From positions 372,001-436,000 of the forward strand of contig CASFFZ010000001.1 of assembly GCA_949294095.1 (NCBI GenBank): a stretch of 64,000 nucleotides of DNA. Direction: 5' to 3'. Shown in pieces: positions 33,219-38,855 of this stretch (within the stretch, counting starts at the first letter, position 1; every line of letters starts with the position of its first letter). The position numbers were made by a program, and so were the translations under genes. This stretch comes from an uncultured bacterium (GTDB taxonomy: Bacteria; Elusimicrobiota; Elusimicrobia; Elusimicrobiales; Elusimicrobiaceae). The notes beneath the pieces were generated by a model, which made no database searches, had not been told where the DNA came from, and saw only the letters and a program-made list of their open reading frames with translations.

Positions 33219-34034
33219 ATGCCCAAGGTGGACTTGCACACCCATTCCCATTTTTCGGACGGCACCAGCACGCCGGAGGAAGTGGTCTTAAGCGCCCTTA
33301 AAACAGGCATTACCGTTTATGCGCTGACCGACCACGACACTACCGACGGCGTGCGCCGGGCGGCCGCCGTGTGCAAAGAACACCGCGTTTTATTTACGCC
33401 CGGCGTAGAAATCAGCACCCGCGATCACGACCACCTGCACTTTACCGGATATAATTTAGATTTGGACAATGCGGACTTCCAAGCCTTTCTGGCGCAAAAC
33501 CGCCACAACCGCCAAGAGCGCATCCGCCAAATCATCCGTCAGCTGCAGCAGGCGGGGGTGGATATTACCGAGCAAGACGTCTTTTCCCGCGCGCCCAATA
33601 CCGTTTCCCGCGCGCACGTGGCGGACGCTTTAAAAGCCAAAAAAATCGTCTCTTCCCGCCAAGAAGGCTTCCGCAAATACCTGGTGCCGGGCCAGCCGGG
33701 CTATGTGCCTTCCGCCGGCGTGACGGCCCTAGAGGCCATTCAGCACATCAAGCGGGCGGGCGGAATTGCCGTCATTGCACACCCCGGCATTGTAGCCGAG
33801 CATTGGAACTTTCCCGCTTGGACGGAAGCCGGCCTGGACGGAGTGGAGGTCTTTTATCCGGCCCATACATTCTCCATGCGCCAAGATTTGCTGGCCGTCG
33901 CCCGCAAATACGGCTTGCTGGCCACGGCCGGATCGGATTACCACGGGCCTCAGGGCGGGCGCAACAGCACGCCCGGCATGCAAATTCCGCAATCCCACTA
34001 CGATAAACTCCTGCGAAAATTATTCAACCGTTAA
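33219..34034 (+). CDS. PHP-domain phosphoesterase (TrpH/RNase AM-like)
   Basis: The protein is 271 aa. The metal ligands are visible in VDLHTHSHFSDGTSTPEE, ALTDHDTTDGV, TPGVEISTRDHDHLHFTGY, AVIAHPG and AGSDYHGP. The family includes 3',5'-nucleoside bisphosphate phosphatase and a 5' exonuclease that matures rRNA. A role in RNA turnover or nucleotide recycling is therefore likely. It follows the NifU-like gene directly. Confidence 0.92.
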   Translation: MPKVDLHTHSHFSDGTSTPEEVVLSALKTGITVYALTDHDTTDGVRRAAAVCKEHRVLFTPGVEISTRDHDHLHFTGYNLDLDNADFQAFLAQNRHNRQERIRQIIRQLQQAGVDITEQDVFSRAPNTVSRAHVADALKAKKIVSSRQEGFRKYLVPGQPGYVPSAGVTALEAIQHIKRAGGIAVIAHPGIVAEHWNFPAWTEAGLDGVEVFYPAHTFSMRQDLLAVARKYGLLATAGSDYHGPQGGRNSTPGMQIPQSHYDKLLRKLFNR

Positions 34035-34094: not shown

Positions 34095-34126
34095 TAAAAA
34101 AGCCCCGGCCTTTACCGGGGCTTGTT
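34095..34126. terminator. Bidirectional terminator between the PHP and MFS-fusion genes
   Basis: GCCCCGG/CCGGGGC stem between A- and T-rich flanks, separating convergent genes. Confidence 0.85.
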
Positions 34127-34139
34127 AAATGGCGTATTT

Positions 34140-37100
34140 TTATTGGGCGGGGGCGGCGTCGTCCAAATTCCCCGCGGGCGGGTTCTTGCCGCCGCGTTTG
34201 AAAAGATTTTTAACGCCTTTCCACAAGCGCTTGGCTTCGTATTTTAATTCTTTGACCATAGTGGAATTGCGCATCATGCCCGGAGTCAGCACCAAGCTGG
34301 CGCCTAAAGCGGCCCCTGCATACAGCAAAGACGACGCGTCAAACCCCGTCATGGCTGCCAGGTAACCCGCCGGAATGGCGCCTAAACCGCCCAGCGCCAT
34401 CGTCAGCGCCAGAATAGAGGAAAGCTCGCGGTTCTGCTTCGGGTATTTGTTCATAATGTAATCATACATTTGGGTAAAGAAGTTCCCCACCCCAAAGCTG
34501 GCCACCGCCGCCCCGGTTACCATCTGGCCCACGCTGTCGCCGGCAGTGGTCATAATTACCGTACCCAAGGCGGAAAACGCCGAGCAGAAGATGTACATAC
34601 TGTCTGCGCTGATGCGGCGGCTGATGATATTGCCGCCCAAACGACCGGCAATCAGCGGTACATACAGCGAACAGGCAATCAGGAAGTTGGCCAGTTCGCC
34701 TTCGGTAATGAGCTGTTTCATCACGCCGGCAAACGAGCTGGAGATGACGAATTCATGCACGGTGGCAAGCGTCATGGCCGAAGCTAAGGAGAACACACCC
34801 GGGACTTTGAGCATTTTGCCCATATTGCCCAGCGTGTTTTCTTGCACGATCAACGAATGTTTGATTTGGGCAGTCAGGTCTTGGGCCTGCGCCGGAGCCA
34901 GGGCATATTCCTGCGTTAAGCGTTTTTCCAAGCGCTGCAGAAAACTGTCCTTTTCTTTTGCGTACAAATCGGCTTTCTTCTGCCCCGGATTTAATTTAAC
35001 ATCCGCAAAAACCAAAGCGTCCAAAGCGTCTTTAAACGCCCGGGCGGCGTCATCAATTTGGGTAGAAGTAATTTTCCCTTCCACCTCGGCCAATGCTTTG
35101 GCGCCGGAGGAAAGAGCCAATTCCAAATTCTTTTTGCTCTGCTCCAAATTCTTGGCGGAATACGCATCCCGCAGTTTGGCCCGCCACACTTTCCACGCCA
35201 CGACGCCGCTGTATACGGCATAGATGGGGAAGCTGATGGAGTAATCAATCCCCAAATCCACGCCCGTGGCCAGCAGAATGCCGTGATTAATTAAATACGG
35301 CGAGGCCAAGAAGGCCAGCGTGCCCACATTTTTGTATACGAAGCTTAAATTGTACAACACCACATCTTTTAAGCTCACTTGGGATTTTTTCGTAAAGAAT
35401 TCTTTCAGCCGCAGCCCGATCTGGGCAAAACCGTGTTTCTGTTCGGCCGTGAATTCGGTTTCGGATTGTTCCAGCGCGGCTTTCGCGTCATTTAAAATTA
35501 CCTCGCCGCGGTTGGCGCGAATCAGCATATTAGAAACCAGTTGCTTTAAGATGCTAGATCCGCTCATTAAGAACAAAGCCGTGATAAACAGCCCCTTGGA
35601 AACCGGCCCCAGCGTCAAACCTTCCACAAAGCCGTAGAAACCGCCCGCACTGGCCAAGATCCCCGCCGCGGAGGACATCGCCAGCGACAGCACCATCAGT
35701 TTCTTCTCCCCGTATTTTTTCAGGATCGGCGTCAGCAGCGAAGCCAGCCCCGGCAAAATATAGTTAATGGTAAACATCATGCTGTTGGCCGCGCTGACTT
35801 GCATATTCAACGCTCCGTTTACCATCGGCCCCATGGTTTTACCCAAGCTGACATTGGTTAAAGACGCATCCCGCATAATCAAATCGGCGCGGTTTTGCGT
35901 GGGATGGACGGACACATTAAAAGAGGTAGGGCTAAAGCGCAAGACTTCCACAAAATTGGCAATTTGATTTTTAGGCAGACGCACGTAAAAACCGGACAGC
36001 GCCGTAGGCGTTATCTCCCCGGGTTTTAATAACCCCAGCGATCCGTCTTCCATGACCACCATTTTTGCATCCGGTATGTACGATTTTACCGGCATTTCCA
36101 CTTCCAAGGGAAGGGGTTGTCTGGTCAACAAATCGTATACGGGCAGCTTGACCGATTTATACACCACATCCGGCGCGCTCTCTAACTTAAGGCTGAATTT
36201 TTCAACCCCGGCCGCTTCAATCAAATCCGCCAGCGCCCCCACTTGGTTGCTTTGCAGCCGCATGTAGAAATGCGCCATCCGCAAAGGTTCCTGCTCCTGG
36301 TTGCGCAGTTCCGCCACATATCCGTGTTTGAAATCCGAATGGGCCGCAAAAGCAATGCGGTTATACCCTTTCACGCGGAAGCGGTTGCTGATTTCCAAAT
36401 TAACCGGCAGGATTTTTTCAATGCCCTTTTCGTCTACCAGCGTTAACTTGAACCCTTTTTCCGATACGGGAATAAAACCCGTTTCATTGGCGCCGATCAC
36501 TTCATCGGCGGCGGCGGGCGCTTCCGGCGAGCGCAAATTGCTAAACACTTCGTGGATTTCCGAATCGTCGTGCAGGCCCGGCTCTTCGGCGGCCGCTTCC
36601 GGGGCGGCGCCTTTTTTCTGGTTCCATTTATTGCGCACCCACGCAACGGTCTTTTGCAGCGCTTTTCCTATTTCAAATACCGGAATGCCGCTGTAGAGCA
36701 CCCCGGAAGAAGAGGCCGGAGCGCTTTTGGCAAAGAATTGGGCGGTTTTTTCTTGTAATCGGGTAGGGGCCGAGGCCGTCGTTTCGCCGGCGGACGCGCC
36801 GCCCGGCAGGGCCACGGGAGCTACATTCAAATCGGTTTGCGGCAAATGCATTTCCGGCAGCGTAATGGCTAAAGCAGGGGCCTGCTCTGGCAAAGCGGCC
36901 GGGGCCGCTTGCGCGGGCGTTCCCAGCGAAAGCCATTGGTCAGTCGCCTGGGAAGAAGCCTTTGCATTGAGGGCATTGGGTTCGCAGCCCGCCCGTAAGA
37001 AAACGGATAAAGCCTCTTGCTCAGCCACCGGAGCAACCGCCCCCTCCGCTACGGAAATCTGTACGCCTTTTGTGGCCGCCCGCTGCGCCACATCTTGCCA

Positions 37101-37937
37101 AAAAGGGCCCTTGGCGGGAACCATTTCCGCCAGTTCTTGCAGTTCTTTATATGCCCCTTGGCGCAGCATGCCGCGCGCGGCAATCAGCGCGGCCGTATCT
37201 TTTAACACGGAGGAAGAGGCTTTTTTGTAAAACGCCAACAACGTTTCCCCGTCTTGCGCGCCGCCCAAAAGACCTAACGCCGCCGCGGAAGACAACGCCT
37301 GCTGGCTGCGGGTAACCGCCTCGTAAGAAGCATGCCCTTTCGTGCGGGCAATTTGCAGCAAGGTATTTAAATCGGTTTGGGGAAGAAGGGCAAAAGAGGA
37401 AGATTTGTCCTGAATATCCGCCCGGTAAAATTGTACGGCTTGGGCCACTTGGGCCGGCTCCGCCCCGCCTTTTAACGCCACGGTTACAAATTCGTTGCGC
37501 AGCAGTCCTTCCCGGAAAGCCGGTTTCGGATAGTTTAAAATGCGCGCGGCCAAACCGTCCGTTTGCCCGGCGGCTGCCAAGGCCCGGATGTCTTTGCCGC
37601 TTAAGGCCAATTGCTGGCGGACGGAGCGGTCTATATTAGTACGAATGGCGGAAAAGTTATAAGAAGGAATCGTAGAGGGAACGGAAACAGCGGGAAAATC
37701 CGACTTGACCGCGCCGGAAAGAGCCGGCACTGCAGCCTGTGCGGCGGAAGCGGACACCCCTTGCCCAAGCAGTTTGCCGGTAAGTTGTTTGCCGGCCGCG
37801 GCCGGAAGATTTTTCGTGCCGCTCTCCAACAAACTCTTGGCTGCCTGCCGACCGGCCGGAACAAGCTGGGCCAGCGACGGCGTAACGCTGCTGACCAACA
37901 GACTGATGCTTAAAATGGCTGCTAGTATTTTATTCAT
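34140..37937 (-). CDS. Giant signal-peptide protein with C-terminal MFS-type transporter
   Basis: The protein is 1265 aa. It starts with a signal peptide (NKILAAILSISLLVSSVTPS). About 690 residues of predicted periplasmic sequence follow: an Ala/Leu-rich helical part, a Pro/Ala-rich linker and, around residues 490-690, beta-rich units in which FYMRLQSNQVGALADLIEAA and FYVRLPKNQIANFVEVLRFS look duplicated. The C-terminal ~570 residues have some 12 membrane helices in an MFS-like pattern (MVLSLAMSSAAGILASAGG, NFLIACSLYVPLIAGRLGG, ALTMALGGLGAIPAGYLAAM). A coiled-coil insert of about 150 residues (LEQSKKNLELALSSGAKAL onward) divides them. Substrate unknown. It has a long upstream leader. Confidence 0.75.
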   Translation of the reverse strand: MNKILAAILSISLLVSSVTPSLAQLVPAGRQAAKSLLESGTKNLPAAAGKQLTGKLLGQGVSASAAQAAVPALSGAVKSDFPAVSVPSTIPSYNFSAIRTNIDRSVRQQLALSGKDIRALAAAGQTDGLAARILNYPKPAFREGLLRNEFVTVALKGGAEPAQVAQAVQFYRADIQDKSSSFALLPQTDLNTLLQIARTKGHASYEAVTRSQQALSSAAALGLLGGAQDGETLLAFYKKASSSVLKDTAALIAARGMLRQGAYKELQELAEMVPAKGPFWQDVAQRAATKGVQISVAEGAVAPVAEQEALSVFLRAGCEPNALNAKASSQATDQWLSLGTPAQAAPAALPEQAPALAITLPEMHLPQTDLNVAPVALPGGASAGETTASAPTRLQEKTAQFFAKSAPASSSGVLYSGIPVFEIGKALQKTVAWVRNKWNQKKGAAPEAAAEEPGLHDDSEIHEVFSNLRSPEAPAAADEVIGANETGFIPVSEKGFKLTLVDEKGIEKILPVNLEISNRFRVKGYNRIAFAAHSDFKHGYVAELRNQEQEPLRMAHFYMRLQSNQVGALADLIEAAGVEKFSLKLESAPDVVYKSVKLPVYDLLTRQPLPLEVEMPVKSYIPDAKMVVMEDGSLGLLKPGEITPTALSGFYVRLPKNQIANFVEVLRFSPTSFNVSVHPTQNRADLIMRDASLTNVSLGKTMGPMVNGALNMQVSAANSMMFTINYILPGLASLLTPILKKYGEKKLMVLSLAMSSAAGILASAGGFYGFVEGLTLGPVSKGLFITALFLMSGSSILKQLVSNMLIRANRGEVILNDAKAALEQSETEFTAEQKHGFAQIGLRLKEFFTKKSQVSLKDVVLYNLSFVYKNVGTLAFLASPYLINHGILLATGVDLGIDYSISFPIYAVYSGVVAWKVWRAKLRDAYSAKNLEQSKKNLELALSSGAKALAEVEGKITSTQIDDAARAFKDALDALVFADVKLNPGQKKADLYAKEKDSFLQRLEKRLTQEYALAPAQAQDLTAQIKHSLIVQENTLGNMGKMLKVPGVFSLASAMTLATVHEFVISSSFAGVMKQLITEGELANFLIACSLYVPLIAGRLGGNIISRRISADSMYIFCSAFSALGTVIMTTAGDSVGQMVTGAAVASFGVGNFFTQMYDYIMNKYPKQNRELSSILALTMALGGLGAIPAGYLAAMTGFDASSLLYAGAALGASLVLTPGMMRNSTMVKELKYEAKRLWKGVKNLFKRGGKNPPAGNLDDAAPAQ

Positions 37938-38217: not shown

Positions 38218-38372
38218 TCAAAAACTCCTTTTATCCTTCTCCATAGATATTATAATAAACTTAGCCTTTCTCCCTCAACCGAATAAAAGACCTATTTTTG
38301 CTTTAGGCCTTTTGGGTTATGCTCCGACGGAGCATAAAAAAGCCCCGGTCAAAACCGGGGCTCAAAAGAAAC
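37938..38372 (-). promoter_or_regulatory. 435-nt leader region of the MFS-fusion gene
   Basis: Besides the possible upstream ORF it holds an inverted repeat ATAGGGCCAAAA/TTTTGGCCCTAT (37992-38032) just upstream of the gene. AGACCTAT occurs twice (38003-38010 and near 38288) and a third time before the ankyrin gene. TATAAT (38249-38254) is a likely -10. I see no other gene. Confidence 0.4.
38335..38362 (-). terminator. Terminator of coaD
   Basis: GCCCCGGT/ACCGGGGC stem 11 nt after the coaD stop, T-run on the minus strand. A smaller TGCTCC/GGAGCA hairpin lies next to it. Confidence 0.85.
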
Positions 38373-38855
38373 TCACGGGCGCTTCTTCCGCCGCAGCGCC
38401 TCCGCCACGCAAGGCGGCACCATCCCGCTTACGTCCGCCCCGTAGGAAAACGCCTCCCGCACCGCCGAAGAGCTTAAAAAAGCATATTCGGGACGGCCCG
38501 GCAAAAAAACGGTTTCCGCCGGGGTATAAAATTGTTTGTTGTAATAGGCGTTTATCAATTCATGCTCCAAATCCCCTTCGCCGCGCAGGCCGCGCACCAA
38601 GACGTTCAGCCCGTTCTTTTTTAAATAATCCGCCAGCAACCCCTCGGCCGCCTCCACCCGGACGTTTTCCTCCCCTTGCAGGGCTTGGCGCAGCAGTTCC
38701 ACCCGTTCTTGCGCCGTAAAAAGCGGCCGCTTACAGGCATTGGGCATTACCAGCACAATCACGGCGCCAAACACGTTCCGCGCCCGGCGGATGATATCTA
38801 TATGCCCGTTGGTAACGGGGTCAAAACTTCCGGCATATACGGCGGGGGTAAGCAT
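38373..38855 (-). CDS. coaD: Phosphopantetheine adenylyltransferase
   Basis: The protein is 160 aa, full length. It makes dephospho-CoA, the fourth step of coenzyme A synthesis. The nucleotidyltransferase motif is GSFDPVTNGHIDII and the second conserved block is FLSSSAVREAFSYGADVSGMVPP. RGLRGEGDLEHELINAYYNK is the family middle block. The ATG is preceded by AAAGGAGC. It is a single gene divergent from dgt. Confidence 0.97.
   Translation of the reverse strand: MLTPAVYAGSFDPVTNGHIDIIRRARNVFGAVIVLVMPNACKRPLFTAQERVELLRQALQGEENVRVEAAEGLLADYLKKNGLNVLVRGLRGEGDLEHELINAYYNKQFYTPAETVFLPGRPEYAFLSSSAVREAFSYGADVSGMVPPCVAEALRRKKRP

What the first reader, a model, noticed from the sequence alone, without database searches (positions are those of the whole stretch)
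34140..37937. 1265-aa fusion of a large secreted region with an MFS-type transporter
A cleavable-type signal peptide leads ~690 periplasmic residues, including a duplicated FY(M/V)RL-x-x-NQ unit, into a ~12-helix transporter interrupted by a long coiled coil. MFS proteins normally have about 400 aa and no such front part. It could be a receptor-coupled transporter or an envelope-spanning complex. I know of no described function.
Basis: partly seen in the sequence, partly recalled or inferred. Interest (0 to 1): 0.58.

Follow-up and report, generated by a model that had tools for sequence, protein, structure and literature searches.

The report
Secreted solenoid fused to membrane transporter
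A group of gut bacteria carries, almost always once per genome, an unusually large membrane transporter whose front half looks exported from the cell interior and can be swapped for other modules; it looks real and conserved, but what it transports and how it sits in the membrane are not yet known.

Summary
34140-37937 (-) is one intact 1265-aa gene: signal peptide, predicted alpha-solenoid (95-337), low-confidence linker, a genuinely duplicated beta unit (FYMRLQSNQ/FYVRLPKNQ), and an MFS core with a long helical central loop. The fusion is no sequencing join: orthologues recur at one locus (coaD - gene - PHP) under purifying selection (dN/dS about 0.11; MFS core 0.03-0.09, solenoid about 0.2). 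The MFS fold is supported by Pfam and structure prediction (VIA Z 35.5). The beta+MFS unit was found in 55 of 294 genomes of the phylum, in 3 of 90 genera, essentially one copy each. Its front end is modular: other orthologues carry different, longer fronts (frames to 4512 aa), and the solenoid also occurs on another MFS core and on proteins without MFS. Some relatives carry paralogue pairs sharing near-identical front DNA. Most likely a secondary transporter with an exported docking or capture solenoid; a sugar or anion substrate is a guess. New variant of a known kind.

The parts
37869..37937 (-). signal peptide, residues 1-23, predicted cleavage SLA|Q
   Evidence: sequence; SP-like start in 40 of 43 relatives
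36927..37655 (-). predicted alpha-solenoid (ARM/HEAT-like), residues 95-337
   Evidence: AF2 model md71c07d5fc68; VIA best Z 8.8, importin-alpha Z 8.2, too low to claim relatedness; paralogues in own genome
36477..36926 (-). A/P-rich linker, largely low-confidence, residues 338-487
   Evidence: pLDDT under 50 at model positions 319-396 = residues 342-419
36624..36707 (-). conserved junction segment with YSGIP, residues 411-438, partly helical
   Evidence: Y415; YSGxP/YGGxP also at the same junction in paralogues with other C-terminal parts
36174..36458 (-). beta unit 1, residues 494-588, with FYMRLQSNQ (557-565)
   Evidence: hhalign against unit 2; AF2
35886..36173 (-). beta unit 2, residues 589-684, with FYVRLPKNQ (650-658); R653, P655, K656 invariant
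35805..35888 (-). TM1-equivalent segment, residues 684-711: polar, broken helix, invariant K700
   Evidence: mean best-17 KD 0.51 in 48 sequences, 1.62 in plain MFS of the same genome; DSSP break; K700
35181..35798 (-). MFS N-half, TM2-TM6, residues 714-919; invariant N809, K869, N870, T873
34797..35180 (-). expanded central loop between TM6 and TM7, residues 920-1047, four predicted helices
34290..34796 (-). MFS C-half, TM7-TM12, residues 1048-1216; invariant S1066, Y1092, R1099, N1152, Q1156, T1179; H1061 92%, E1062 98%
   Evidence: Pfam MFS_1 best stretch 1053-1221
34143..34289 (-). C-terminal helix and tail NLDDAAPAQ, residues 1217-1265
   Evidence: tail NLD[DG]A[AT]P[AV][QN] at the end of 9 of 24 aligned sequences
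38249..38278 (-). promoter-like site TTGAGG-18-TATAAT
   Evidence: consensus scan, 10 of 12; promoter count not above shuffles
34100..34123 (-). terminator-like stem right after the stop codon
   Evidence: 10-bp stem, 7 G-C pairs, T tail

Best explanation
A single gene, apparently its own transcription unit, encodes a modular inner-membrane transporter of the major facilitator superfamily. The signal peptide sends an ARM/HEAT-like solenoid into the periplasm. A flexible linker with the conserved YSGxP helix joins it to a duplicated beta domain and an MFS core. The core is a working secondary transporter (inferred): polar residues are invariant in several of its predicted membrane helices. The solenoid captures the substrate, or docks the permease to a partner in the periplasm or at the outer membrane (inferred). 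The transport unit is kept almost unchanged while the exported front evolves quickly and is replaced in other species. Shown: the fusion, predicted fold, conservation, modularity, loop-charge pattern. Inferred: export by Sec, transport activity, role of the solenoid, a sugar or anionic substrate.
For: MFS fold; MFS_1 at E<=0.1 in 35 of 48 sequences. Positive-inside pattern without exception in the mean over 48 sequences: loops 1-2, 3-4, 5-6, 7-8, 9-10, 11-12 net -0.33 to -1.27, the others and the C-terminus +1.23 to +5.1. Invariant or near-invariant polar residues in TM helices: N725, N803, N809, K869/N870/T873, H1061/E1062/S1066, N1152/Q1156, T1179 and K700. Selection against L005: dN/dS 0.113 overall, MFS halves 0.028 and 0.060, beta 0.063, solenoid 0.202 (broadly the same trend in three more species). 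Essentially one copy per genome in 55 of 294 genomes (three genomes have extra weak partial hits). Fixed locus: PHP gene convergent at the 3' side in 39 of 48 loci; coaD just upstream on the same strand in 19 of 48, while 17 others are cut off at the 5' side. In 4 of 5 distinct g2 species looked at, the gene precedes an SSF symporter-galK-galE-galT row on the same strand at 137-157 bp. Own terminator-like stem.
Against: No transport assay or substrate. Sub-family not identified: no NCBIfam family for this protein; L-fucose permease model only E 0.016 in 2 of 48. The solenoid has no significant structural match (best E 0.28). Topology parity: signal peptide plus canonical 12-helix core needs an extra crossing that is not visible, and TM1 is polar. 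In two relatives an in-frame stop separates the halves in the linker. 11 of 58 g1 genomes show no beta-domain hit (several are incomplete), so it is not strictly essential.
Confidence: 0.5

Rival explanations
1. Receptor rather than transporter: the MFS core has become a ligand sensor or scaffold (as recalled for UhpC-type MFS sensors), and the solenoid and beta domains pass on the state of occupancy; little or no flux.
For: Large conserved beta domain and expanded helical central loop, both possible signalling surfaces; degenerate TM1; one giant relative carries receiver, TPR and ankyrin domains ahead of the same unit (L039).
Against: Polar TM residues of the core are invariant, as expected for transport, though also for sensing; no kinase or regulator among the neighbours tested in the window or in other loci.
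Confidence: 0.2
2. Topology variant (can be true together with the transporter or the sensor reading): the whole front including the beta domain is periplasmic and TM1 does not span, giving an 11-helix MFS core.
For: TM1 is the only non-hydrophobic MFS helix: mean KD 0.51, with a charged residue in the best 17-mer of all 48, against 1.62 in plain MFS of the genome (13 rows, one gene counted three times); broken in AF2; the second MFS of the tandem relative L041 and the plain MFS L104 have hydrophobic TM1 (1.58 and 1.89).
Against: VIA aligns the TM1 segment to the start of canonical MFS (model 200-202); the 930-aa paralogue family has the same kind of exported front but a hydrophobic TM1 (mean 1.62, n=16); in the 3965-aa relative the beta domain follows another MFS unit and is then most simply cytoplasmic.
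Confidence: 0.4
3. Surface or host-interaction protein: the giant modular family serves contact with protists, host or neighbours, the MFS part being an anchor.
For: Fast-evolving exported part; swappable fronts; near-identical fronts shared by paralogues; odd domains in some giants (L109: Zeta_toxin, Kdo kinase, AvrB-like, MFS).
Against: The MFS core, not the front, is the most constrained part; no outer-membrane or secretion partner found among the neighbours tested.
Confidence: 0.1
4. Two genes joined by a sequencing or assembly error.
For: In-frame stop in the linker of L085 and of L094/L192.
Against: Aligned without stops from residue 1 or 2 to 1254 or beyond in 14 other genomes (L005-L014, L028 and the matches in G040, G286, G195); purifying selection through the linker.
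Confidence: 0.01

Closest known systems
Major facilitator superfamily, MFS_1 (PF07690)
   Same: Six-plus-six helix fold, positive-inside loops, match over the curated cut-off
   Different: Signal peptide, ~460-aa solenoid and linker, duplicated beta domain, expanded central loop, degenerate TM1
Sugar MFS of the fucose/glucose-galactose type (FucP, GluP)
   Same: A plain 397-aa relative picked up by the family profile (L104, E 9e-7) scores FucP 1e-19 and GluP 5e-19, below their cut-offs; weak fucose-permease hit in 2 of 48 sequences
   Different: This protein itself has no such hit
LplT-Aas type MFS fusions (name recalled; one candidate in the same genome, L154, 1165 aa)
   Same: MFS fused to further domains, over 1100 aa
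   Different: There the MFS comes first and what look like acyltransferase/ligase parts (read by eye) follow; no solenoid
ARM/HEAT solenoids (importin-alpha, AP-1 beta)
   Same: Similar repeat-helix arrangement, Z 8.0-8.8
   Different: Z too low for relatedness; predicted to be exported

Membership tests
Major facilitator superfamily | Match to Pfam MFS_1 above the curated cut-off | tested here: met
   33.7 against 33.4 bits; the C-terminal part alone scores 29.8, below it; 35 of 48 sequences match at E<=0.1
Major facilitator superfamily | MFS fold in a predicted structure | tested here: met
   Foldseek E 7e-7, MdfA TMt 0.75; VIA FLVCR2 Z 35.5, rmsd 3.1, 373 aligned
Major facilitator superfamily | Twelve membrane-spanning helices | tested here: inconclusive
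   TM2-TM12 clear; TM1 polar and broken
Major facilitator superfamily | Motif A in loops 2-3 and 8-9 (motif recalled) | tested here: inconclusive
   KKYGEKK and GRLGGNIISRRIS lie at the right places by eye but lack the usual Asp
Major facilitator superfamily | Secondary transport activity | not testable with these tools
   needs an assay
Fucose/glucose-galactose MFS (TIGR00885, TIGR01272) | Score above the NCBIfam cut-off | tested here: not met
   No hit for the full protein; neither model among the families shown for the 48 sequences (first 25 of 37 shown)
ARM/HEAT repeat proteins | Significant structural or sequence match of residues 95-337 | tested here: inconclusive
   Foldseek best E 0.28; VIA Z 8.8 at most, under the 13 advised for helical repeats; no Pfam repeat hit

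The most novel reading that the evidence does not exclude
A lineage-specific class of giant modular receptor-transporters: MFS cores, some with a TM1 that no longer spans the membrane, are joined through a YSGxP junction to interchangeable exported ectodomains, and paralogues in one genome keep their ectodomains near-identical by gene conversion so that different permeases share one docking or capture module.
Probability: 0.22. Interest if true: 0.72.

Novelty: new variant of a known kind. Interest (0 to 1): 0.5.

Why it matters
It shows a family of MFS proteins three to ten times the normal size in which an exported module was added in front of the permease. If the module captures or docks substrate, it would be a single-protein answer to what other bacteria do with separate binding proteins or receptors. 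The clash between signal peptide and MFS topology makes it a direct test of how far the orientation of an MFS core can be forced, and gives a first function to look for in a little-studied gut lineage.

Tried and rejected
Rejected: sequencing join (intact orthologues; dN/dS). Rejected: fold unrelated to MFS. PDB sequence searches with the protein, the beta+MFS profile, the beta profile and the MFS profile gave nothing meaningful. NCBIfam gave no family. Foldseek gave no match for the solenoid/beta model at E <= 0.001. In VIA the listed rows covered mainly model 79-283, so the beta domain's fold stays untested there. No plasmid match. Rfam found only a tRNA in the window. A simple transmembrane scale did not settle the parity question: no compensating helix in the short type, one hydrophobic segment near residue 540 in several long relatives, a YSGxP junction segment in many short ones but also in one long one (L186), so the two are not clean alternatives. 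Literature: searches (listings with starts of abstracts only, no paper opened) showed no description of such proteins; the 2009 Elusimicrobium minutum genome paper (recalled) was not seen, so 'undescribed' is limited to these searches.
Full report
Check of the observation. The ORF at 34140-37937 on the minus strand is 1265 aa with an ATG start. It is followed at once by a terminator-like stem (34123-34100) and preceded by a terminator-like stem on the coaD side (38363-38340) and a promoter-like site (38278-38249), so it is probably its own transcription unit (consensus matches only, and promoter-like sites were not more frequent than in shuffles). The neighbours are ordinary: a PHP-domain gene convergent at 33219-34034 and a coaD-type gene at 38373-38855 (Pfam families; the name coaD is my reading).

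Anatomy. Residues 1-23 form a typical signal peptide ending SLA|Q. AF2 with 24 sequences (pLDDT 70.5, pTM 0.41) gives an alpha-solenoid at 95-337, a low-confidence linker, and beta structure from about 489 on. A second model of 480-1250 with 48 sequences (pLDDT 79.7, pTM 0.69) gives the beta domain, a broken TM1 (684-693, 703-710), TM2-TM6, four helices in the central loop, TM7-TM12 and a C-terminal helix. Foldseek finds MFS structures (best E 7e-7, MdfA TMt 0.75) and VIA gives Z 35.5 with FLVCR2, rmsd 3.1 over 373 residues. The beta domain is a true duplication: hhalign probability 96.1 and E 3e-9 between its halves against 0.3 or less for six control slices.

Conservation. dN/dS against L005 is 0.113 overall, 0.028 and 0.060 in the MFS halves, 0.063 in the beta domain, 0.124 in the central loop and about 0.20 in solenoid and second linker. 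Against L006-L008 the order is broadly the same, though in L007 the MFS N-half reaches 0.088 and dS is near saturation in places. Across 48 sequences polar residues in or next to membrane helices are invariant (K700). The mean charge of the loops alternates without exception.

Distribution. With this protein 58 of 294 genomes of the phylum match; with the beta+MFS profile 63 of 294, in 4 of 90 genera; with the beta profile alone 55 of 294, in 3 of 90 genera: 47 g1, 7 g2, 1 g3, all one family. The 55 best beta hits lie at places of the beta+MFS hits, so the beta domain was not seen apart from the core. 11 of 58 g1 genomes lack it. A pattern-based scan of GTDB 220 genomes gave 48 loci; 41 titles name an Elusimicrobia-level taxon (one of them Candidatus Avelusimicrobium) and 7 say only 'uncultured bacterium'. 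That scan needs one of two short conserved peptides and can miss remote relatives. The single-contig genome G034 (1,643,562 bp; I recall this as about the size of Elusimicrobium minutum) has a 3965-aa and a 1721-aa member.

Modularity. In the own genome the front of this protein recurs in three paralogues: 930 aa with another MFS core (Pfam 5e-12), 1456 aa with several membrane segments but no Pfam MFS hit, and 968 aa without membrane segments after the signal peptide. So front homologues without an MFS exist; L112 (653 aa) is another. Conversely, the beta+MFS unit at the same coaD-PHP locus carries a different, longer front in L076 and L079 (1835 and 1817 aa). L041, L042 and L023 carry a second MFS-like part behind the first (read from the sequence; Pfam match in L041). 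L039 (4512-aa frame) has TPR, ankyrin and receiver domains ahead of the unit.

Shared fronts. In 17 of 48 loci the contig ends inside the 5' part of this gene, against 2.4 (1.5 kb of target) to 5.0 (3.1 kb) expected; among contigs of 40 kb or more it is 10 of 27 against 0.4-0.9. The loci were found by the 3' part of the gene, so breaks at the other end could not be seen. I looked for second copies in five such genomes. In three the contig edge is shared with another contig: G136 (77 bp exact, 91% over 204), G130 (99 bp exact, 97% over 381) and G073 (77 bp exact). After that the sequences part into two different proteins with several membrane segments; the G136 partner has no Pfam hit. G063 and G216 showed only their own copy (G216 was searched with the G063 sequence). 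Exact lengths of 77 and 99 look like assembler word sizes, that is, a fork behind a repeat (inference). In G036, where both genes are assembled, the fronts are 55-59% identical in protein and 66% in DNA. Paralogues in one genome thus share their exported fronts, in some species almost identically at the point that could be read: recent duplication or gene conversion, not resolved here.

Topology. The signal peptide should put the solenoid outside, and the loop charges put the loop between TM1 and TM2 outside. Then either TM1 does not span, or another segment crosses before the beta domain. For the first: TM1 is polar in all 48 (mean best-17 KD 0.51; 1.62 in plain MFS of the same genome, 13 rows of which three are one gene). 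Against it: the 930-aa family has the same kind of front and a hydrophobic TM1 (1.62, n=16), and four of its 16 members lack even the YSGxP-type junction (by eye); in the 3965-aa relative the beta domain stands behind another MFS unit. I leave this open. Forced crossing of weakly hydrophobic segments is known in principle (recalled).

Function. A functional secondary transporter with an exported docking or capture module fits best: the core is the most constrained part and its polar membrane residues are invariant, while the front varies. Lysines at 700 and 869 and the H-E pair at 1061-1062 suggest an anionic or proton-coupled substrate (inference). The galactose-gene neighbourhood in four of five distinct g2 species (gene order; families checked in L037 only) and the FucP/GluP-like plain relative L104 point weakly to sugars. 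Neither is a test. A sensor role remains a serious rival.

Verdict. Real, conserved, lineage-restricted as far as searched, and unusual; MFS membership is well supported apart from TM1 and untested activity; mechanism only partly inferred. New variant of a known kind, interest 0.5.

Noticed in passing
L169/L166 (G136), L170/L167 (G130), L171/L168 (G073): Contigs end inside the gene's 5' part and share 77, 99 and 77 bp exactly with the edge of another contig that encodes a different large protein with several membrane segments: shared, nearly identical exported fronts.
   Followed up: partly
L085:7745-7767 and L094/L192 (linker): In-frame stop codons in the linker just ahead of the YSGxP junction (L085) or its likely equivalent (L094/L192), separating signal peptide plus solenoid from beta plus MFS; natural split, decay or error unknown.
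   Followed up: partly
L109:2314-13311:-: A 3667-aa open frame in a g2 genome with MFS, Zeta_toxin, Kdo-kinase, AvrB_AvrC and weak Trypsin_2 matches.
   Followed up: no
L039:3-12626:+: Giant frame (4512 aa) with TPR, ankyrin and receiver domains before the beta+MFS unit; receiver domains behind an exported front would be odd.
   Followed up: no
L041:2-4177:+ and L102:1766-13660:+: Relatives with two MFS units in tandem; L102 also has a Trypsin_2 domain near the C-terminus.
   Followed up: partly
L037, L038, L040, L093, L099, L100, L101: In four distinct g2 species the gene is followed on the same strand by an SSF symporter, galK, galE and galT (families checked by Pfam in L037 only).
   Followed up: partly
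window:34143-34169: C-terminal tail NLDDAAPAQ or a close variant is kept in 9 of 24 aligned sequences, including distant ones; function unknown.
   Followed up: no
L154:1042-4536:-: Own genome also has a 1165-aa MFS fusion that by eye resembles LplT-Aas (acyltransferase and acyl-CoA ligase parts).
   Followed up: no
L157:4248-5564:+: 439-aa protein with a similar signal peptide and a receiver-like C-terminal stretch (by eye), weak match to the front profile (E 0.007).
   Followed up: no
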